Part shown: one piece after another, positions 13,311-19,959 of the stretch
Layout: the number at the start of each line of letters is the position of its first letter
Position numbering within the stretch: the first letter of the stretch is position 1
Made by a program: the position numbers and the translations under genes
DNA from: a virus
Reading direction: 5' to 3' (one strand)
DNA: 28,897 bases
IMG/VR virus record: IMGVR_UViG_3300028559_002697
Coordinates: 1 to 28,897 of that record
The notes under the pieces: generated by a model
The model's input: only the letters and a program-made list of their open reading frames with translations
What the model was told of the DNA's origin: nothing
Databases searched by the model: none

Positions 13311-14072
13311 ATGAAAACCATAATCCAATCCGAACTGAGCCGCATCGAGAGCGAATACGGCGTGCAGGTGCTTTATGCCGTCGAATCCGGCAGCCGAGCT
13401 TGGGGGTTCGCGTCGACCGACAGCGACTACGACGTGCGGTTTATCTACCTGCGTGCTCCGGAGTGGTATCTTTCCGTCGAGCAGAAGCGCGATGTGATCG
13501 AGGAGCCGATCAGCGGCGATCTCGACATCAGCGGCTGGGATCTGCGCAAGGCGCTCGGCCTCCTGCGGAAGTCCAACCCTCCCCTGCTCGAATGGCTAAG
13601 ATCGGCCATCGTGTATCGGGAGGACGTGGAATTCTCCACTGGCTTCCGTGCCCTGGCAGAACATTACTACAGTCCGGCGAAATGCTTTCTTCACTACCTG
13701 CACATGGCCGAGGGAAATTTCCGAGATTACCTGCGCGGGGAGGTTGTCTGGCTGAAAAAGTATCTCTACGTGCTCCGGCCTATCTGCGCCTGCCGGTGGA
13801 TCGAGCGCGGGCTCGGTCCAGTGCCGATGGAGTTCTCCAAACTCGTGGACAAGACGATTGACGACGTGATGCTGCGCTTCGCCATCGCCGACCTCGTCGT
13901 GCGCAAACGAAACGGGGAGGAATTGGACCGCGCACCACGCGTGCCGGTAATCAGCGAGTTTGTCGAATCCGAACTCGCCAGACTGGCTGACATCGCGCCT
14001 GAGAAAACCGATCCTCCGCCGTTCGCCGATCTCGACGCATTCTTCCGAAACATCCTTCTCAAAGCCGCATGA
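13311..14072 (+). CDS. rlaP: RNA-repair nucleotidyltransferase, RlaP (DNA polymerase beta superfamily)
   Basis: A 253-residue protein. Residues 20-45 carry the polymerase-beta nucleotidyltransferase signature: a hydrophobic strand, GSRAWGF (27-33) and SDYDVR (38-43), giving the GS and paired acidic residues that bind nucleotide and metal (D39, D41). The rest is helical. This matches the RlaP (YcgL-like) family, predicted from gene neighbourhoods to work with RNA ligases in RNA repair, probably by adding nucleotides to damaged RNA ends. The gene overlaps rtcB by four bases (ATGA), the expected partner, which strengthens the call. An attenuator-like leader lies just upstream. The biochemical activity of the family is mainly predicted; CCA or end repair of tRNA is an inference. 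Confidence 0.85.
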   Translation: MKTIIQSELSRIESEYGVQVLYAVESGSRAWGFASTDSDYDVRFIYLRAPEWYLSVEQKRDVIEEPISGDLDISGWDLRKALGLLRKSNPPLLEWLRSAIVYREDVEFSTGFRALAEHYYSPAKCFLHYLHMAEGNFRDYLRGEVVWLKKYLYVLRPICACRWIERGLGPVPMEFSKLVDKTIDDVMLRFAIADLVVRKRNGEELDRAPRVPVISEFVESELARLADIAPEKTDPPPFADLDAFFRNILLKAA

Positions 14073-15454
14073 AAACCAAAGACATCCTCAAACTTGGCGT
14101 TCCCCTCGGGAAACCGATGGACGAGGCCTTCATTTTTATTTCTGCCTTCTGCACGGGAGGTGGAGATAAGGAGAGCCTCGGAGCGGAAATTTCCGCGATC
14201 GTTGCCGCACCCAGCACCTTCGCTGAGGATCCGCTTCGCGGTCCCCTTGCGACCGCACTACAAGCTCCGGACCTCTACATGCCCGGAAAACCGCCGGCCC
14301 CGTGGAAGCAGTGGGGATCTGATATCGATGACATGGCACTCAAGCAGATCGAAGCGGCAAGCCTGCTGCCGATTTCTGTCGCTGCTGCCCTGATGCCTGA
14401 TGCACACGTCGGATACGGGCTGCCGATCGGGGGCGTGCTGGCCACGGAAAACGCCGTCATCCCGTATGCCGTGGGCGTGGATATCGCGTGTCGCATGAAG
14501 ATGAGCGTCCTCGACCTGCCGACGGGCTGGCTCAGTGACCGAAAAGACCGGCTGGCTGAAGCCATCGAAAAGGAGGCCAAGTTTGGTGTCGGCTCCACTT
14601 TTAAGGACCGCAGGGCACACGCTGTCCTCGACGAGGACTGGTCGGTGAGTCCCATGACGGCAAAAAACAAGGAACGCGCATGGGCGCAACTCGGAACGAG
14701 CGGGAGCGGAAACCACTTCGTGGAATTCGGTCTCCTGACGGTGACCGACAAAACGTGTGGACTTGAACCCGGCGAATACGTGGCGCTCCTCTCTCACAGC
14801 GGAAGCCGTGGAACCGGGGCGGCTGTTTGCGACCACTACAGCAAGATCGCCACGGCCCAGCATAGAGAACTGCCGAAGGAATTGTCGCGCCTCGCGTGGC
14901 TCTCCCTCGACAGCGCGGACGGTCAGGAATACTGGGCGTCCATGAACCTGATGGGCCGGTATGCGGCGGCCAACCATGCCCTCATCCACAAACACATCAC
15001 CGAAAACCTCGGAGTCGAGGTCCTCTTGGATGTTGAAAACCATCACAACTTCGCGTGGAAGGAAGTCCATTTCGGAAAAGAAGTCATCGTCCACCGCAAA
15101 GGGGCAACCCCGGCGGGGGATGGCGTGCTCGGAATCATTCCAGGCTCGATGGCAACTCCCGGCTTCCTCGTCAGCGGAAAAGGCAACGCGGACTCGCTCA
15201 ACTCGGCTTCGCACGGCGCGGGTCGTGCGATGAGTCGCACCCGTGCAAACGAAACGCTTTCCTGGCACGATGCAAACGCATTTCTGCGAGAGCGCGGCGT
15301 CACGTTGATCTCTGCCGGACTCGACGAAGTTCCGTTTGCCTACAAGGACATCGAAACCGTGATGTCGGCCCAAACTGATCTGGTCAAGGTGCTGGCCCGC
15401 TTCGACCCCAGACTGGTCAAAATGTGCCCGAGCGGGGAGCGTCCCGAGGACTAA
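14069..15454 (+). CDS. rtcB: RNA-splicing ligase RtcB
   Basis: A 461-residue RtcB. It joins RNA ends carrying 2',3'-cyclic or 3' phosphate to 5'-OH ends using GTP and Mn2+, the ends left by anticodon nucleases. Visible motifs: PDAHVGYG (110-117), VDIAC (137-141) with metal-binding Asp138 and Cys141, GSGNHFVE (212-219), HSGSRG (243-248), HNFAW (326-330), HRKGATPAGDG (342-352), IPGSMAT (357-363) and HGAGRAMSR (382-390), whose His382 should be the guanylylated residue. All catalytic residues appear intact. It is co-translated with RlaP and lies about 650 nt from a 37-tRNA array, pointing to tRNA as substrate. Confidence 0.95.
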   Translation: MKTKDILKLGVPLGKPMDEAFIFISAFCTGGGDKESLGAEISAIVAAPSTFAEDPLRGPLATALQAPDLYMPGKPPAPWKQWGSDIDDMALKQIEAASLLPISVAAALMPDAHVGYGLPIGGVLATENAVIPYAVGVDIACRMKMSVLDLPTGWLSDRKDRLAEAIEKEAKFGVGSTFKDRRAHAVLDEDWSVSPMTAKNKERAWAQLGTSGSGNHFVEFGLLTVTDKTCGLEPGEYVALLSHSGSRGTGAAVCDHYSKIATAQHRELPKELSRLAWLSLDSADGQEYWASMNLMGRYAAANHALIHKHITENLGVEVLLDVENHHNFAWKEVHFGKEVIVHRKGATPAGDGVLGIIPGSMATPGFLVSGKGNADSLNSASHGAGRAMSRTRANETLSWHDANAFLRERGVTLISAGLDEVPFAYKDIETVMSAQTDLVKVLARFDPRLVKMCPSGERPED

Positions 15455-16111: not shown

Positions 16112-16184
16112 TGCGGGAAGGATTGGCATCCTGCCGGGTCTCATAAGCCTGGCTCCCGTGGTTCGATCCCACGTCCCGCGACCA
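16112..16184 (+). tRNA. tRNA-Met or tRNA-Ile2 (CAT)
   Basis: Anticodon CAT at 16142-16144; acceptor TGCGGGA/TCCCGCG, A73, encoded CCA. Normal T-loop TTCGATC and a GG-containing but shortened D-arm; total 73 nt. One of only two tRNAs here with a standard elbow, and similar to the initiator at 16454. Confidence 0.85.
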
Positions 16185-16194
16185 ATTTCAACAA

Positions 16195-16269
16195 TGCGGA
16201 GGGCACCAGCTTGTGCAGCCGGGTCTCCAAAACCCAGCTTGCCCGGGGCAGCACCGGGACTCCGTGCCA
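16195..16269 (+). tRNA. tRNA-Trp (CCA), divergent
   Basis: Anticodon CCA at 16227-16229; D-stem GCAC/GTGC; T-stem CCCGG/CCGGG with loop GGCAGCA; G73 and CCA. The acceptor stem is ambiguous by one base and the 5' end may be 16196. G55 elbow variant. Confidence 0.75.
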
Positions 16270-16282
16270 TTTTACCCAAGAT

Positions 16283-16358
16283 GGAGGCCGTAGTGTATCA
16301 GTTAGCATTGCAGGCTGTGAACCTGCCGGAGCGGGTGCGAACCCCGTCGGTCTCCCCA
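16283..16358 (+). tRNA. tRNA-His (GTG)
   Basis: Anticodon loop CTGTGAA. Acceptor GAGGCCG/CGGTCTC with an extra 5' G opposite C73, the histidine identity pair; encoded CCA. T-loop TGCGAAC, D-loop ATCAGTTA (A18 G19). Confidence 0.9.
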
Positions 16359-16369
16359 TCTCATTCAAC

Positions 16370-16444
16370 GGGCCGCTAGATTAGTCAGTAAATCAGCCGG
16401 TTTGCACCCGGCAGTGCACGGAGCATAGCCGTGGCGGTCCACCA
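16370..16444 (+). tRNA. tRNA-Ala (TGC)
   Basis: Anticodon TGC at 16403-16405; acceptor GGGCCGC/GCGGTCC with G-T at pair 3-70, the alanine identity pair; CCA encoded. D-loop AGTCAGTA; T-loop AGCATAG, so both 54/58 and 55 differ from standard. Confidence 0.9.
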
Positions 16445-16453
16445 TTTCATAAC

Positions 16454-16526
16454 CCCGGAGAGGACAGGTGTCCCGGCGTGTCTCATAAGCATGCCTTGCG
16501 TGGTTCGATTCCACGCTCCGGAACCA
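16454..16526 (+). tRNA. Initiator-like tRNA-fMet (CAT)
   Basis: Anticodon CAT at 16484-16486. Acceptor CCCGGAG/CTCCGGA leaves C1-A72 unpaired, the mark of bacterial initiators. Standard T-loop TTCGATT; D-arm GGAC-AGGT-GTCC with a 4-nt loop, unusually short. The three G-C pairs expected above the anticodon are not complete. CCA encoded. Confidence 0.85.
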
Positions 16527-16531
16527 TTTTC

Positions 16532-16609
16532 CCCTGTGTAGCCCAATCAAGTAGAGGCACCACGTCGAGAACGTGGACAGTGCGGGTGCAAATCCTGCCG
16601 CAGGGACCA
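16532..16609 (+). tRNA. tRNA with Leu anticodon (GAG), class I body
   Basis: Loop TCGAGAA between CCACG and CGTGG places GAG at 16567-16569 with C33 instead of U33. Variable region only 5 nt although bacterial tRNA-Leu has a long arm. T-loop TGCAAAT; A73, CCA. Confidence 0.8.
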
Positions 16610-16616
16610 CTCTTAC

Positions 16617-16694
16617 GAACCCGATGCCACAGCAGACCGGCACCCGACTTTTAATCGGACATTGGTGAGGTTGCAACTACCTCCGGGTTCACCA
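16617..16694 (+). tRNA. tRNA-Lys (TTT)
   Basis: Anticodon TTT at 16650-16652; acceptor GAACCCG/CGGGTTC; T-loop TGCAACT; A73 and CCA encoded. Confidence 0.88.
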
Positions 16695-16695
16695 C

Positions 16696-16769
16696 TGCCC
16701 TGTCGTCCAACAGTAGGACAGCGGACTCTGAATCCGCCGATGATGGTGCGAATCCATCTGGGGCAGCCA
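16696..16769 (+). tRNA. tRNA-Gln (CTG)
   Basis: Anticodon CTG at 16728-16730; acceptor TGCCCTG/TGGGGCA with the T1-A72 pair usual for Gln; G73, CCA. D-loop AACAGTA, T-loop TGCGAAT. Confidence 0.9.
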
Positions 16770-16773
16770 TTTT

Positions 16774-16863
16774 GGAAGATGAACCGGACAAGCGCGCCGG
16801 GACTGTTTCGAAAACAGATCGGGCCGGCAACGGCCTGGGGAGCATGCCCTCCGTCTTCCGCCA
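16774..16863 (+). tRNA. tRNA-Ser (CGA)
   Basis: Class II with long variable arm; loop TTCGAAA between CTGT and ACAG; acceptor GGAAGAT/GTCTTCC, G73, CCA. T-loop AGCATGC. Body almost identical to three other Ser tRNAs in the array. Confidence 0.9.
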
Positions 16864-16868
16864 GTTTC

Positions 16869-16944
16869 GGACGCGAGTAACAACAGCATGTTTGCCTGCC
16901 TGTCGAGCAGGAGCGAGCGGGGGCAGCACCCGTCGCGTCCGCCA
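16869..16944 (+). tRNA. tRNA-Asp (GTC)
   Basis: Anticodon GTC at 16902-16904; acceptor GGACGCG/CGCGTCC; G73 as expected for Asp; CCA. T-loop GGCAGCA. Confidence 0.9.
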
Positions 16945-16952
16945 TTTATCAA

Positions 16953-17029
16953 GCCCGCGAAGACGAAGCAGTCGAGTCGCGTCTCTCTCACAGACGAGCA
17001 AGTCGGTGCGAGTCCGGCCGCGAGCGCAA
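16953..17029 (+). tRNA. tRNA-Glu (CTC), 3' end CAA
   Basis: Anticodon CTC at 16987-16989 in stem CGTCT/AGACG; acceptor GCCCGCG/CGCGAGC with one mismatch; G73. The encoded 3' end reads CAA, not CCA. T-loop TGCGAGT. Confidence 0.82.
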
Positions 17030-17036
17030 GTTTCCT

Positions 17037-17111
17037 CGGGCACGAGGAAGAAAGTAATCCGCCTGCCTTGGGAGCAGGATATACCCGGAGCGTTACCGGG
17101 GTGCCCGACCA
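17037..17111 (+). tRNA. tRNA-Pro (TGG), copy 1
   Basis: Anticodon TGG at 17069-17071; acceptor CGGGCAC/GTGCCCG; A73, CCA. T-loop AGCGTTA. A second Pro(TGG) with a different body lies at 18075. Confidence 0.9.
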
Positions 17112-17121
17112 TTTCAAAAGC

Positions 17122-17199
17122 GCGCCAGTGATGTTCAACAGTCCAGCATGCCGCTCTTCCAAAGCGGTCGTCCGGGTGCAACTCCCGGTTGGCGCACCA
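17122..17199 (+). tRNA. tRNA-Gly (TCC)
   Basis: Anticodon TCC at 17158-17160; acceptor GCGCCAG/TTGGCGC; CCA encoded. D-loop contains AACAG, T-loop TGCAACT. Confidence 0.9.
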
Positions 17200-17205
17200 G
17201 TTTCC

Positions 17206-17283
17206 GCCCCCGTGGCTCGAACAGATCAGGCACCCGTCTTCTAAACGGGATCGATGCCGGTGCAATTCCGGCCGGGGGTTCCG
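17206..17283 (+). tRNA. tRNA-Arg (TCT), 3' end CCG
   Basis: Anticodon TCT at 17240-17242 in stem CCCGT/ACGGG; acceptor GCCCCCG/CGGGGGT. Encoded 3' end CCG, one base from CCA. T-loop TGCAATT. Confidence 0.85.
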
Positions 17284-17291
17284 ATTTTTAT

Positions 17292-17368
17292 GCGCCGCAT
17301 GCCGAAGCCGTCGAGGCGACTGCTTGCAAACCAGTCCTTACCCGGTGCGAGTCCGGGGCGGCGCTCCA
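17292..17368 (+). tRNA. tRNA-Cys (GCA)
   Basis: Anticodon GCA at 17326-17328; acceptor GCGCCGC/GCGGCGC; T73, the cysteine discriminator; CCA. One C-C mismatch closes the anticodon loop. T-loop TGCGAGT. Confidence 0.88.
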
Positions 17369-17373
17369 TTTCT

Positions 17374-17448
17374 CTCCGCGTGATGTAACAGACAGCATGC
17401 GAGGCTTCGAACCTCGTCGTCAGGGTGCAAATCCTTGCGTGGAGACCA
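17374..17448 (+). tRNA. tRNA-Arg (TCG)
   Basis: Anticodon TCG at 17407-17409; acceptor CTCCGCG/CGTGGAG; A73, CCA. D-loop AACAGACA, T-loop TGCAAAT. Confidence 0.9.
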
Positions 17449-17453
17449 AATCT

Positions 17454-17542
17454 GGAAGGCGAACCGGACGAGCGGGCCGGGACTCATTGCTAATGAGATC
17501 GGGCCGGGAAACCGGCCTGGGGAGCATGTCCTCCACCTTCCG
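17454..17542 (+). tRNA. tRNA-Ser (GCT), no encoded CCA
   Basis: Class II; anticodon GCT at 17489-17491 in CTCA/TGAG; acceptor GGAAGGC/ACCTTCC with a mismatch at pair 7; G73 followed by CGT. T-loop AGCATGT. Confidence 0.85.
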
Positions 17543-17549
17543 CGTCTTT

Positions 17550-17625
17550 CCCCATGTAGCCCAACAGAAGAGGCATCCGACTTAAAATCGGACAAGTGCG
17601 GGTGCGAATCCCGCCGTGGGGATCA
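17550..17625 (+). tRNA. tRNA with Leu anticodon (TAA), class I body, 3' TCA
   Basis: Anticodon TAA at 17583-17585; acceptor CCCCATG/CGTGGGG; A73 then TCA. Variable region 5 nt, unlike bacterial tRNA-Leu. Body resembles the GAG and CAG tRNAs. T-loop TGCGAAT. Confidence 0.85.
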
Positions 17626-17631
17626 CCTTTC

Positions 17632-17706
17632 GCCGTGCAAGCATAGACAGCGATGCAGCCGATTCGTAATCGGCAGAGCAGGGCGCAAGTCCCTGGCGTG
17701 GCTCCA
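17632..17706 (+). tRNA. tRNA-Thr (CGT)
   Basis: Anticodon CGT at 17665-17667; acceptor GCCGTGC/GCGTGGC; T73, CCA. T-loop CGCAAGT (C54). Confidence 0.88.
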
Positions 17707-17712
17707 ATTTTT

Positions 17713-17788
17713 CTCCGCATGATGTAACAGACGAGCATCTCCCCGTCCTAAGGGGAGCGTGAAGGTGCAACTCCTTCTGCGGAGAGCA
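17713..17788 (+). tRNA. tRNA-Arg (CCT), 3' end GCA
   Basis: Anticodon CCT at 17747-17749; acceptor CTCCGCA/TGCGGAG; A73 then GCA. T-loop TGCAACT. Confidence 0.86.
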
Positions 17789-17795
17789 AGTATTA

Positions 17796-17871
17796 CCCCG
17801 CGTAGCCCAACAGTAGAGGCATCCGGCTCAGAACCGGACCAGTGCGCGTGCAAATCGTGCCGCGGGGACCA
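17796..17871 (+). tRNA. tRNA with Leu anticodon (CAG), class I body
   Basis: Anticodon CAG at 17829-17831; acceptor CCCCGCG/CGCGGGG; A73, CCA; 76 nt with a 5-nt variable region. D-loop AACAGTA, T-loop TGCAAAT. Confidence 0.88.
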
Positions 17872-17874
17872 TTT

Positions 17875-17966
17875 GGAAGATGAACCGGACTAGCGCGCCG
17901 GGGCCGGCTGGAAACCGGTTCGGACCTCCACTCGGAGCGTCTGGGGAGCATGCCCTCCGTCTTCCG
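17875..17966 (+). tRNA. tRNA-Ser (GGA), no encoded CCA
   Basis: Class II; anticodon GGA at 17910-17912 in CCGG/CCGG; acceptor GGAAGAT/GTCTTCC; G73 followed by CTC. T-loop AGCATGC. Confidence 0.87.
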
Positions 17967-17994
17967 CTCCCCAGCATTTCACTTTCTTACATTT

Positions 17995-18070
17995 TCGTGC
18001 CGGCAACTTCCCGGGCCAGACTGCAATCGTGGCCCGAGGGGGATCGGATGCAGCCGGTGGCCTGGCACGA
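17995..18070 (+). ncRNA. tRNA-sized structured element, no clear cloverleaf
   Basis: Ends pair as TCGTGCCGG with CCTGGCACGA (9 pairs, one G-T) over exactly 76 nt. Inside is a 7-bp stem CGGGCCA/TGGCCCG with an 11-nt loop and a possible ATCGG/CCGGT stem. D-arm not evident. It occupies the only large gap in the tRNA array. Could be a decayed tRNA or a tRNA-like RNA. Confidence 0.45.
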
Positions 18071-18074
18071 ATTT

Positions 18075-18150
18075 CGGGCTGTAGCGTAGTAGCCAACGCA
18101 CCTGCCTTGGGAGCAGGGGATCGCGGGTGCAAGTCCCGCCAGCCCGACCA
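18075..18150 (+). tRNA. tRNA-Pro (TGG), copy 2
   Basis: Anticodon TGG at 18108-18110; acceptor CGGGCTG/CAGCCCG; A73, CCA. D-loop AGTAGCCA (A18 G19), T-loop TGCAAGT. Confidence 0.9.
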
Positions 18151-18158
18151 CTTTTCAT

Positions 18159-18251
18159 GCGTGCGAGGCGACTGCCAGATGTGTCGCCCTGGTCTGTAAA
18201 ACCAGGCCCTTTGGGTAAACAGTGGAGGTGCAACTCCTCCCGCACGCACCA
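18159..18251 (+). tRNA. tRNA-Tyr (GTA)
   Basis: Class II, as usual for Tyr; anticodon GTA at 18196-18198; acceptor GCGTGCG/CGCACGC; A73, CCA; variable arm CCC/GGG. T-loop TGCAACT. Confidence 0.9.
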
Positions 18252-18256
18252 ATTTT

Positions 18257-18331
18257 CGCTGGATGGCATAGAGAGATGTGCGCGGGTCTGAAGAGCCCGA
18301 GAGGTTGGCGCAATTCCAACTCCAGCGGCCA
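18257..18331 (+). tRNA. tRNA-Phe (GAA)
   Basis: Anticodon GAA at 18290-18292; acceptor CGCTGGA/TCCAGCG; G73, CCA. T-loop CGCAATT (C54), D-loop AGAGAGAT. Confidence 0.87.
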
Positions 18332-18341
18332 ATTTCAAAAA

Positions 18342-18415
18342 CCGGCGGTGATGTAACAGTAGCATGGCTGGCCTACACCCAGCTCGCGAGGGGGCAGAAC
18401 CTTCCCGCCGGACCA
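18342..18415 (+). tRNA. tRNA-Val (TAC), C33
   Basis: Anticodon TAC at 18374-18376 preceded by C33; acceptor CCGGCGG/CCGCCGG; A73, CCA. T-loop GGCAGAA (G54, G58). Confidence 0.85.
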
Positions 18416-18421
18416 CTTATC

Positions 18422-18492
18422 GCGGCATTCGTCTATCAGCAGGACACCACGTTGCCAACGTGGATGGGCCGGAGCGTCACCGGCATGCCGCA
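18422..18492 (+). tRNA. tRNA-Gly (GCC), no encoded CCA
   Basis: Anticodon GCC at 18454-18456; acceptor GCGGCAT/ATGCCGC; A73 followed by ATT. T-loop AGCGTCA. Confidence 0.85.
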
Positions 18493-18496
18493 ATTT

Positions 18497-18571
18497 GCCG
18501 CCGAAGCATAGAAAGCGATGCGCGCCCCTGGTATGGGCGGAAGCCGGGTGCAAGTCCTGGCGGTGGCCCCA
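18497..18571 (+). tRNA. tRNA-Thr (GGT)
   Basis: Anticodon GGT at 18530-18532; acceptor GCCGCCG/CGGTGGC; C73, CCA. T-loop TGCAAGT. Confidence 0.87.
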
Positions 18572-18578
18572 CTTTTTC

Positions 18579-18651
18579 GTCCCCGTAGTTCAGCAGACAG
18601 AATGCAAGGTTGCGAACCTTGAGGCCGCAGGTGCAATTCCTGCCGGGGACA
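18579..18651 (+). tRNA. tRNA-Arg (GCG), no encoded CCA
   Basis: Anticodon GCG at 18612-18614; bacteria normally read these codons with ACG, so G34 is unusual. Acceptor GTCCCCG/CGGGGAC; A73 followed by CTT. T-loop TGCAATT. Confidence 0.85.
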
Positions 18652-18659
18652 CTTTTTAT

Positions 18660-18734
18660 TGCCGTGTCGTCCAACAAGCAGGACTCCGGATTTTGGATCC
18701 GGCTATGATGGTGCGAATCCATCTGCGGCAGCCA
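18660..18734 (+). tRNA. tRNA-Gln (TTG)
   Basis: Anticodon TTG at 18693-18695; acceptor TGCCGTG/TGCGGCA with T1-A72; G73, CCA. Close relative of the CTG copy. T-loop TGCGAAT. Confidence 0.9.
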
Positions 18735-18739
18735 GCTTT

Positions 18740-18829
18740 GGAAGATGAACCGGACAAGCGCGCCGGGACCGCCTTGAAAGCGGATCGGGCCAGAAACGGC
18801 CTGGGGAGCATGCCCTCCGTCTTCCGCCA
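18740..18829 (+). tRNA. tRNA-Ser (TGA)
   Basis: Class II; anticodon TGA at 18775-18777; acceptor GGAAGAT/GTCTTCC; G73, CCA. T-loop AGCATGC. Confidence 0.9.
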
Positions 18830-18832
18830 CTT

Positions 18833-18906
18833 GCCCGCATAGCTCAATAGCAGAGCAGCCGACCGATAATCGGCAGACCGGGGTGCAAATCCCCGTGTGG
18901 GCACCA
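18833..18906 (+). tRNA. tRNA-Ile (GAT), C33
   Basis: Anticodon GAT at 18865-18867 preceded by C33; acceptor GCCCGCA/TGTGGGC; A73, CCA. D-loop AATAGCA, T-loop TGCAAAT. Confidence 0.88.
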
Positions 18907-18915
18907 ATTTTTGAT

Positions 18916-18990
18916 ACCAGCGTGGGATAACAGTAGTCCACCCGCCTGTTAAGCGGAACGGTGATGGTGCGAATCCATCCGCTGGTGCCA
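18916..18990 (+). tRNA. tRNA-Asn (GTT)
   Basis: Anticodon GTT at 18948-18950; acceptor ACCAGCG/CGCTGGT; G73 as usual for Asn; CCA. D-loop AACAGTA, T-loop TGCGAAT. Confidence 0.9.
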
Positions 18991-18996
18991 TTTCAT

Positions 18997-19069
18997 GCCG
19001 CGCAAGCATAAACACGAGATGCACCCGCCTTGTAAGCGGGAGATCCGGGTGCAACCCCCGGGCGTGGCT
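18997..19069 (+). tRNA. tRNA-Thr (TGT), 3' end CCC
   Basis: Anticodon TGT at 19031-19033; acceptor GCCGCGC/GCGTGGC; T73 followed by CCC. T-loop TGCAACC; D-loop AAACACGA lacks the A-G pair of the others. Confidence 0.86.
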
Positions 19070-19074
19070 CCCCT

Positions 19075-19165
19075 CCTCCCGTTGTGTAAAGTAGCACGGC
19101 CGACTTATGATCGGTTAGCCCTAGATTTGGGCGCGGTCCGGGTGCGAGTCCTGGCGGGAGGACCA
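19075..19165 (+). tRNA. tRNA with Ile anticodon (TAT), class II body
   Basis: Anticodon TAT at 19106-19108. Long variable arm of about 22 nt with GCCC/GGGC stem, although Ile tRNAs are class I. Acceptor CCTCCCG/CGGGAGG; A73, CCA. T-loop TGCGAGT. Charging identity uncertain. Confidence 0.82.
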
Positions 19166-19170
19166 TTTTT

Positions 19171-19243
19171 CGCTCCGTAGTTCAGAGAGAAGAACGCCGG
19201 TTTCATAAGCCGGATGTCGCAGGTGCGATTCCTGCCGGAGCGA
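19171..19243 (+). tRNA. tRNA-Met elongator (CAT), no encoded CCA
   Basis: Anticodon CAT at 19204-19206; acceptor CGCTCCG/CGGAGCG; A73 followed by TCG. T-loop TGCGATT, so it shares the G55 variant, unlike the other two CAT tRNAs. Confidence 0.85.
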
Positions 19244-19252
19244 TCGTTTCAG

Positions 19253-19328
19253 GCCCACGAATGCAAAGAGACGAGCGCCTCGCCTTTCAAGCGAGTCCTA
19301 GCCGGTGCAAGCCCGGCCGTGGGTGCCA
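19253..19328 (+). tRNA. tRNA-Glu (TTC)
   Basis: Anticodon TTC at 19286-19288; acceptor GCCCACG/CGTGGGT; G73, CCA. T-loop TGCAAGC. Last tRNA of the array, 46 nt before the HNH gene. Confidence 0.9.
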
Positions 19329-19374
19329 ATATTGAGCGCGATGAACGCATGAAGAACACACGAGGAAATTTACC

Positions 19375-19959
19375 ATGAAAGACAAACTCACATCTCCAAA
19401 CGTGCTCGCCCTGAACGCGAACTGGCAGGCCATTGATGTTTACACGCCTCAAAAGGCGTTTTGCATGATGGCCTCCGGTGCCGCTGCGGGCATCGACACC
19501 TCGGGTGGATCCATGGTCCCGCTTCTCTGGGAGAAGTGGATCGTGCTTGATACCGAACCCGGCGAGGATGCTGCCATGACGGCCAAAGGTCCGATCCGCA
19601 TCCCCCGCGTGATCATCGCAGTGAATTACAGATTCCTGAGGATCAAAACCGAGCCGCTGACGCACGAAACCATCGCCCGCCGGCAGGACTTCCGCTGCGC
19701 CTACAGCGGCAGGCCAGTCCGCCGGAAGAACTGGTCGCTCGACCACGTTATCCCGAAGAGCCGGGGTGGATCCTCGTCATGGGACAATCTCGTTATTGCC
19801 GACAAGGAAGTGAACAACCGCAAAGGGGACCGCACCCCCTCCGAGGCTGGGCTCTCGCTGCTGCACAAGCCGCAGGCCCCGCGAAGGTATATGCCAGGGG
19901 ACGACATCAGGCGGAAGTTCGGGGTCCTCTTTCGCGAGTGGGAGCCGTTCATGAAATGA
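19375..19959 (+). CDS. HNH endonuclease
   Basis: A 194-residue protein. The C-terminal half holds the HNH core: CAYSGRPV (108-115), LDHVIPKSRGG (122-132) with the metal/base His, and SWDNLV (135-140) followed by NNRKGDRTP (147-155). Only one cysteine of the usual CxxC pair is present, so the zinc ribbon is degenerate. The N-terminal 95 residues resemble the leader domain of phage and cyanobacterial HNH proteins. Start ATG has GAGGA 8 nt upstream, a normal Shine-Dalgarno site, unlike most genes here. It closes the tRNA array. It may be a homing nuclease that helped assemble or move the array, or one acting in packaging; the former is an inference from position. Confidence 0.85.
   Translation: MKDKLTSPNVLALNANWQAIDVYTPQKAFCMMASGAAAGIDTSGGSMVPLLWEKWIVLDTEPGEDAAMTAKGPIRIPRVIIAVNYRFLRIKTEPLTHETIARRQDFRCAYSGRPVRRKNWSLDHVIPKSRGGSSSWDNLVIADKEVNNRKGDRTPSEAGLSLLHKPQAPRRYMPGDDIRRKFGVLFREWEPFMK

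What the first reader, a model, noticed from the sequence alone, without database searches (positions are those of the whole stretch)
16195..19328. Nearly all phage tRNAs exchange the G18-psi55 elbow for A18-G55
In 35 of 37 tRNAs the T-loop has G at position 55 (T-G-C, A-G-C, G-G-C or C-G-C in place of T-T-C). In the same tRNAs the D-loop G18-G19 reads A-G (AACAGTA, AGTCAGTA, AATAGCA and so on), Thr(TGT) being the clear exception. The two CAT tRNAs that keep TTC (16112, 16454) also keep GG. The linked change of both partners of one tertiary contact, in tRNAs of otherwise very different sequence, implies selection for a redesigned elbow. Position 55 is otherwise nearly invariant and is read by TruB, RNase P, the CCA enzyme and ribosomal elements. 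Possible gains are escape from tRNA-targeting immunity or from host modification checkpoints.
Basis: partly seen in the sequence, partly recalled or inferred. Interest (0 to 1): 0.95.

Follow-up and report, generated by a model that had tools for sequence, protein, structure and literature searches.

The report
tRNAs with a swapped elbow contact
A small phage carries a tRNA set for all 20 amino acids in which both partners of a near-universal contact that holds the tRNA's L-shape have been exchanged together (G18-U55 to A18-G55); the same paired exchange has happened many times in other viruses and in some bacteria, so it looks like a real, working alternative to a textbook rule.

Summary
Of 37 tRNAs, 35 have G55; 33 of those have A18 and two (Cys GCA, Thr TGT) have C18. 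G19-C56 is kept. In 521 distinct tRNAs not chosen by the pattern: A18/G55 163, G18/T55 334, A18/T55 3, G18/G55 2. On a tree with 18, 54, 55 and 58 masked, the two sites switch together repeatedly and never oppositely. It is not phage-only: SAR11 tRNA-Phe (the only one found in the genome checked), Patescibacteria tRNA-Cys and a Mycoplasma tRNA-Ile use it, so it very probably works in translation. Verrucomicrobia MAG contigs carry similar converted arrays beside HNH and RtcB genes, while the scattered core tRNAs of the MAG checked are canonical. Stems are kept by compensatory change. Why whole arrays convert is open. Escape from tRNA-cleaving immunity is possible but untested; loss of TruB tracks the switch in SAR11 but not in Patescibacteria or Verrucomicrobia. 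Best reading: a spare tRNA set with a compensated alternative elbow, in an RNA-repair cassette.

The parts
13311..14072 (+). RlaP, RNA-repair nucleotidyltransferase
   Evidence: PF10127 E 8.9e-93
14069..15454 (+). RtcB RNA ligase, overlapping RlaP by 4 bases
   Evidence: PF01139 E 1.8e-87; 67-70% identical RtcB near arrays in Verrucomicrobia MAG contigs
16112..16184 (+). tRNA CAT, canonical GG/TTC, short D-arm
   Evidence: ARAGORN; sequence
16195..16270 (+). tRNA-Trp CCA, T-loop GGCAGCA (G55), irregular D-arm with A-G
   Evidence: read from sequence
16284..16358 (+). tRNA-His GTG, A18/G55
16370..16444 (+). tRNA-Ala TGC, A18/G55, A54-T58
16454..16526 (+). tRNA CAT, canonical GG/TTC, short D-arm
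16532..16609 (+). tRNA-Leu GAG, A18/G55, C33
16617..16694 (+). tRNA-Lys TTT, A18/G55
16696..16769 (+). tRNA-Gln CTG, A18/G55
16774..16863 (+). tRNA-Ser CGA, A18/G55, A54-T58
16869..16944 (+). tRNA-Asp GTC, A18/G55, G54-G58
16953..17029 (+). tRNA-Glu CTC, A18/G55
17037..17111 (+). tRNA-Pro TGG, A18/G55, A54-T58
17122..17199 (+). tRNA-Gly TCC, A18/G55
17206..17283 (+). tRNA-Arg TCT, A18/G55
17292..17368 (+). tRNA-Cys GCA, C18/G55 (exception)
17374..17448 (+). tRNA-Arg TCG, A18/G55
17453..17545 (+). tRNA-Ser GCT, A18/G55, A54-T58
   Evidence: read from sequence
17550..17625 (+). tRNA-Leu TAA, A18/G55
17632..17706 (+). tRNA-Thr CGT, A18/G55, C54-A58
17713..17788 (+). tRNA-Arg CCT, A18/G55
17796..17871 (+). 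tRNA-Leu CAG, A18/G55
17875..17969 (+). tRNA-Ser GGA, A18/G55, A54-T58
18075..18150 (+). tRNA-Pro TGG, A18/G55
18159..18251 (+). tRNA-Tyr GTA, A18/G55
18257..18331 (+). tRNA-Phe GAA, A18/G55, C54-A58
18342..18415 (+). tRNA-Val TAC, A18/G55, G54-G58, C33
18422..18495 (+). tRNA-Gly GCC, A18/G55, A54-T58
18497..18571 (+). tRNA-Thr GGT, A18/G55
18579..18654 (+). tRNA-Arg GCG, A18/G55
18660..18734 (+). tRNA-Gln TTG, A18/G55
18740..18829 (+). tRNA-Ser TGA, A18/G55, A54-T58
18833..18906 (+). tRNA-Ile GAT, A18/G55, C33
18916..18990 (+). tRNA-Asn GTT, A18/G55
18997..19072 (+). tRNA-Thr TGT, C18/G55 (exception)
19075..19165 (+). tRNA-Ile TAT, A18/G55, 22-base variable region
19171..19246 (+). tRNA CAT (Met or Ile2), A18/G55
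19253..19328 (+). tRNA-Glu TTC, A18/G55
19375..19959 (+). HNH endonuclease directly downstream of the array
   Evidence: PF13395 E 5.2e-10; 42-44% identical HNH next to converted arrays in L319, L321, L353

Best explanation
Shown by sequence: 18 and 55 form a coupled pair of sites with two fit states, G18-U55 and A18-G55 (C18 or U18 with G55 as minor forms), and lineages switch between them by changing both. G19-C56 stays, and 54-58-60 takes one of a few matched sets, so the elbow is re-formed and not lost. Inferred from SAR11: A18-G55 tRNAs work in translation. The window array is a nearly complete second tRNA set (20 amino acids; 54 of 61 sense codons by standard wobble, 60 with U34 superwobble), with the RNA-repair genes RlaP and RtcB upstream and an HNH nuclease gene downstream. 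Similar converted arrays with HNH and RtcB lie in Verrucomicrobia MAG contigs. Inferred: it is a mobile spare-tRNA and RNA-repair cassette that keeps translation going when the cell's ordinary tRNAs are damaged or withdrawn. Whole-array conversion, as opposed to sporadic switching, is best explained by selection against an activity that reads the G18-U55 elbow or needs its modification. Which activity that is, is not known.
For: Coupling: at least 120, 0, and 3 real of 8; 163/334/3/2 without pattern-selected tRNAs; 18 independent pairs, 55 follows in 16.3, opposite in 0, median p 3e-5; 29 pairs, 28.1 same, 0 opposite. Function: the SAR11 genome of L145 has one tRNA-Phe among the 25 tRNAs found, A18/G55, all others G18/T55. 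Constraint: 186 compensatory, 27 one-sided, 30 broken stem pairs between window tRNAs and same-anticodon tRNAs of other arrays. Second set: the Verrucomicrobia genome with L243 has 29 scattered canonical tRNAs and two converted arrays. Cassette: HNH and RtcB near converted arrays in L319, L321, L322, L353; L321 also has RNA ligase, HD-AAA_33 kinase and ADP-ribosylglycohydrolase. Decoding.
Against: No expression, charging or structure data. RtcB and RlaP are not general companions of other viral A18/G55 tRNAs (RtcB in 3, RlaP-like in 4 weak, of 39 records besides L012), so the repair link holds only for the window and Verrucomicrobia cassettes. Fully converted arrays are a minority among virus loci; most are mixed. 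MAG contigs may be misbinned. The role of the HNH is unknown; it could be a homing nuclease.
Confidence: 0.6

Rival explanations
1. Escape from tRNA-cleaving immunity: a host nuclease or toxin reads the G18-U55 elbow, and A18-G55 tRNAs are spared.
For: A nearly complete tRNA set and repair enzymes fit an attack on tRNAs. Phage tRNAs are known to counter tRNA-targeting defences (PMC10264068, PMC11555353). Two Verrucomicrobia arrays have AbiEi-like, MzaA-like and Schlafen-AlbA_2 genes near them.
Against: No nuclease known to me discriminates at 18 or 55; the words T-loop, D-loop and elbow are absent from the two papers checked. The switch also occurs in chromosomal tRNAs that have no evident need of it, and mixed arrays would leave most tRNAs exposed.
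Confidence: 0.25
2. Independence from modification: without Psi55 (and m5U54, Gm18) the G18-U55 contact is weak, so where modification is missing or too slow the A18-G55 form is favoured.
For: In 58 genomes of the SAR11 order the A18/G55 pattern is in 14, all without TruB, and in 0 of 31 with TruB (Fisher p 2e-6). The Mycoplasma haemocanis genome shows no TruB. Phage tRNAs are made fast (general knowledge).
Against: In 240 Patescibacteria, 10 of the 15 genomes with the pattern have TruB, the same share as overall. All five Verrucomicrobia MAGs with arrays have TruB. The SAR11 genomes may represent one or two events, and their completeness is not known.
Confidence: 0.3
3. Common descent: one A18/G55 ancestor was duplicated and its anticodon changed, so the linkage is a founder effect.
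For: 204 of 282 A18/G55 tRNAs have their nearest relative elsewhere in the same state; label changes are fewer than in shuffles.
Against: 64 are nearest to a G18/T55 tRNA, one Cys pair differing at only 4 of 63 masked sites. Independent pairs on supported branches show repeated joint switches. Window Ser tRNAs resemble a canonical Ser tRNA of phage DSS3_MAL1.
Confidence: 0.08
4. Decayed or non-translational tRNA-like genes.
For: ARAGORN misses 16 of 37; several lack encoded CCA, U8 or U33.
Against: Compensatory stem changes outnumber broken pairs 186 to 30; all 20 amino acids are covered; no other tRNA-Phe was found in the SAR11 genome.
Confidence: 0.04

Closest known systems
Canonical bacterial tRNA elbow (G18-Psi55, G19-C56, T54-A58)
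   Same: Cloverleaf, G19-C56 pair, purine at 18 that can intercalate, 54-58 pair
   Different: 18-55 is A-G in place of G-U; 54-58-60 has extra matched sets; no U55 for TruB
Phage tRNAs that counter tRNA-targeting defences (PMC10264068, PMC11555353)
   Same: Phage-borne tRNA sets; resistance by sequence or abundance is a plausible use
   Different: The reported changes are in the anticodon loop or in expression level; here both partners of the elbow contact change
RNA-repair operons with RtcB, RlaP, RNA ligase, kinase
   Same: Same protein families beside the array
   Different: Here joined to a nearly complete second tRNA set and an HNH gene
Large tRNA arrays on plasmids, e.g. Mycolicibacterium alvei pJCM12272
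   Same: Dense array of more than 20 tRNAs with an HNH gene inside
   Different: Its tRNAs are G18/T55

Membership tests
tRNA (RF00005) | Cloverleaf with 7/4/5/5 bp stems, 7-base anticodon and T loops | tested here: met
   33 of 37 parsed with intact stems; 18 Rfam matches in all, 17 over the gathering score
tRNA (RF00005) | Near-invariant G18-G19 and U54-U55-C56 | tested here: not met
   35 of 37 have G55, 33 of these A18; G19 and C56 kept. The feature is near-invariant, not absolute: chromosomal A18/G55 tRNAs exist
tRNA (RF00005) | Charged and used in translation | not testable with these tools
   Only indirect: an A18/G55 tRNA-Phe is the only one found in a SAR11 genome
RtcB RNA ligase | RtcB fold over most of the protein | tested here: met
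   PF01139 E 1.8e-87, phrog_1075 E 1.2e-96
RlaP | Full-length RlaP nucleotidyltransferase | tested here: met
   PF10127 positions 1-248 of 249, E 8.9e-93
Phage tRNAs that escape tRNA nucleases | Resistance to cleavage by a host nuclease | not testable with these tools
   No assay possible
Elbow change by loss of TruB | A18/G55 only in cells without TruB | tested here: not met
   True in the SAR11 sample, false in Patescibacteria and Verrucomicrobia

The most novel reading that the evidence does not exclude
Cells and phages can hold two tRNA sets that differ by an elbow signature. The A18-G55 set is a mobile backup that enzymes reading the G18-U55 elbow ignore, so translation can be moved to a protected set during tRNA-targeting conflict.
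Probability: 0.25. Interest if true: 0.95.

Novelty: new variant of a known kind. Interest (0 to 1): 0.85.

Why it matters
[quoted passage not shown] 2006, known here from its title in the reference list of PMC4810234). A recurrent natural double exchange gives comparative evidence for the contact and a ready-made test of what TruB, the ribosome, RNase P and tRNA nucleases read there. It also means that standard tRNA finders miss many viral tRNAs, and it points to backup tRNA sets next to RNA-repair genes.

Tried and rejected
TruB loss as a general cause: holds in the SAR11 sample, fails in Patescibacteria and Verrucomicrobia. RtcB/RlaP as a general partner of A18/G55 tRNAs: rare outside the window and Verrucomicrobia cassettes. 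My apparent G18/G55 cases: most read A18-G19-G20 and were misassigned by a rule that preferred GG. Cultured phages: ten regions fetched through BLAST hits showed no A18/G55 tRNA; in one more, Rhodococcus phage REQ2, my parser found no tRNA. Literature searches for G55 or A18 with tRNA found no report; the library is open-access only. The promoter scan of the array gave nothing above chance; terminator-like sites (11 against 4.7 expected) are mostly tRNA stems or lie on the other strand.
Full report
Check of the observation. The window is a 28,897-base virus record classed as linear. ARAGORN lists 21 tRNAs and Rfam 15 at its gathering score. A parser that asks only for stems and basic landmarks finds 33, and four more can be read from the sequence: CAT at 16112 and 16454, Trp at 16195, Ser(GCT) at about 17455. 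The total is 37. All but the two early CAT tRNAs have G at position 55. Position 18-19 is A-G in 31 of 33 parsed tRNAs and C-G in Cys(GCA) and Thr(TGT); Trp and Ser(GCT) also read A-G. G19-C56 is kept in all 30 tested.

Not chance and not misalignment. One fixed tRNA pattern (D-loop 7, variable loop 5, CCA) was scanned over all viral contigs with only 18 and 55 changed. G18+G55 gave none. A18+T55 gave eight, of which three are real; three were misaligned GG and two were not tRNAs. Because that scan selects A18+G55, I removed every tRNA matching the patterns and counted the rest in the same loci: A18/G55 163, G18/T55 334, A18/T55 3, G18/G55 2. On a tree built without 18, 54, 55 and 58, 18 phylogenetically independent pairs differ at 18; 55 follows in 16.3 on average and never goes the other way (median p 3e-5). 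With all tRNAs it is 29 pairs and 28.1. The tree is weakly resolved, so the number of switches (102-131 by parsimony on all branches) is not to be trusted; the direction of the coupling is.

More of the T-loop is redesigned. In A18/G55 tRNAs, 54-58-60 is U-A-U in most, but A-U-A, G-G-A and C-A-A sets make up about a fifth; these are rare in G18/U55 tRNAs. G54-G58 is, from memory, one of the combinations found in active suppressor tRNAs selected from randomised loops by the Steinberg group; I could not check this in the library.

It works in cells. A genome scan with the same pattern found chromosomal A18/G55 tRNAs in many SAR11 genomes (Phe, sometimes His), in Patescibacteria (Cys, Gly), in Mycoplasma haemocanis (Ile), and in Verrucomicrobia and cyanobacterial MAG contigs. 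In one SAR11 genome 25 tRNAs were found; the only tRNA-Phe is A18/G55 and the others are G18/T55. That genome appears from its strain name to be a single-cell assembly and may be incomplete, so 'only' means only one found.

The array is a second, nearly complete set. The window tRNAs cover all 20 amino acids; with standard wobble 54 of 61 sense codons, with U34 superwobble 60. Against same-anticodon tRNAs of other arrays, stems show 186 compensatory, 27 one-sided and 30 broken pairs; some of these pairs may be analogous and not orthologous. In mixed virus arrays either state occurs in almost every isotype. The Verrucomicrobia genome that holds L243 has canonical core tRNAs (29 of the 30 best matches; the other one lies in the array) and two separate converted arrays.

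Neighbourhood. RlaP and RtcB lie upstream of the array, an HNH gene downstream. In Verrucomicrobia MAG contigs L319 and L321 the order array, HNH, RtcB recurs, with HNH 44% and RtcB 67-70% identical to the window's; L353 has an HNH 42% identical with a distant RtcB, and L322 distant copies of both, in the same order. L321 adds an RNA ligase, an HD-AAA_33 kinase and an ADP-ribosylglycohydrolase between HNH and RtcB. None of the window's phage structural proteins tested match there, so the cassette travels apart from the phage body. Outside this group, RtcB and RlaP are rare in records with A18/G55 tRNAs. The host of the window phage is not known; among the phages listed its terminase has the lowest E-value with Verrucomicrobia phage P8625, and the cassette points the same way. 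L012 is the same phage from another record (99.96% over 19 kb).

Why the exchange? A18-G55 would leave TruB no U55. In the SAR11 order all 14 genomes with the pattern lack TruB and none of the 31 with TruB have it. In Patescibacteria there is no association, and Verrucomicrobia MAGs with arrays have TruB. Loss of TruB may thus permit or favour the switch but is not required. Escape from tRNA-targeting immunity fits the complete set and the repair genes; published cases concern the anticodon loop or tRNA abundance (PMC10264068, PMC11555353), and no elbow-reading nuclease was found in what I could search. I rate the coupled alternative elbow as well supported, the spare-set reading as likely, and the selective agent as open.

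Novelty. Open-access full-text searches for A18 or G55 with tRNA returned no report, and a T-loop review has no mention of either. Subscription literature, including in vivo selections of D- and T-loop variants, was not searchable, so some precedent is possible. Rating: a new variant of a known kind.

Noticed in passing
16112-16184 and 16454-16526: The two canonical-elbow CAT tRNAs have short D-arms (about 12 bases, 4-base loop) and weak 1-72 pairs, as in initiators.
   Followed up: partly
16532-16609, 18342-18415, 18833-18906: Leu(GAG), Val(TAC) and Ile(GAT) have C33 in place of the near-universal U33.
   Followed up: no
16617-19328: U8 is lost in 13 window tRNAs, often with G21 (A8-A14-G21 in six, G8-G14-G21 in three), so the 8-14-21 contact also changes; this is not general in other A18/G55 tRNAs.
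   Followed up: partly
19075-19165: Ile(TAT) tRNA has a 22-base variable region, as in class II tRNAs.
   Followed up: no
L014-L132: Many viral contigs carry an A18/G55 tRNA with anticodon CAT (53 distinct), often beside no other tRNA.
   Followed up: partly
L284: SAR11 tRNA-Thr(GGT) has a G54-T55-C56 loop with G58 while keeping G18.
   Followed up: no
L353 and L354: One Verrucomicrobia genome has two converted arrays, each with its own HNH and RtcB.
   Followed up: partly
L319:8330-9496 and L321:1167-1976: A Schlafen AlbA_2 gene and an AbiEi-like gene lie near converted arrays, as in defence islands.
   Followed up: partly
19284-19340: Weak twister-sister ribozyme match below the family cut-off, overlapping the last tRNA; probably chance.
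   Followed up: no
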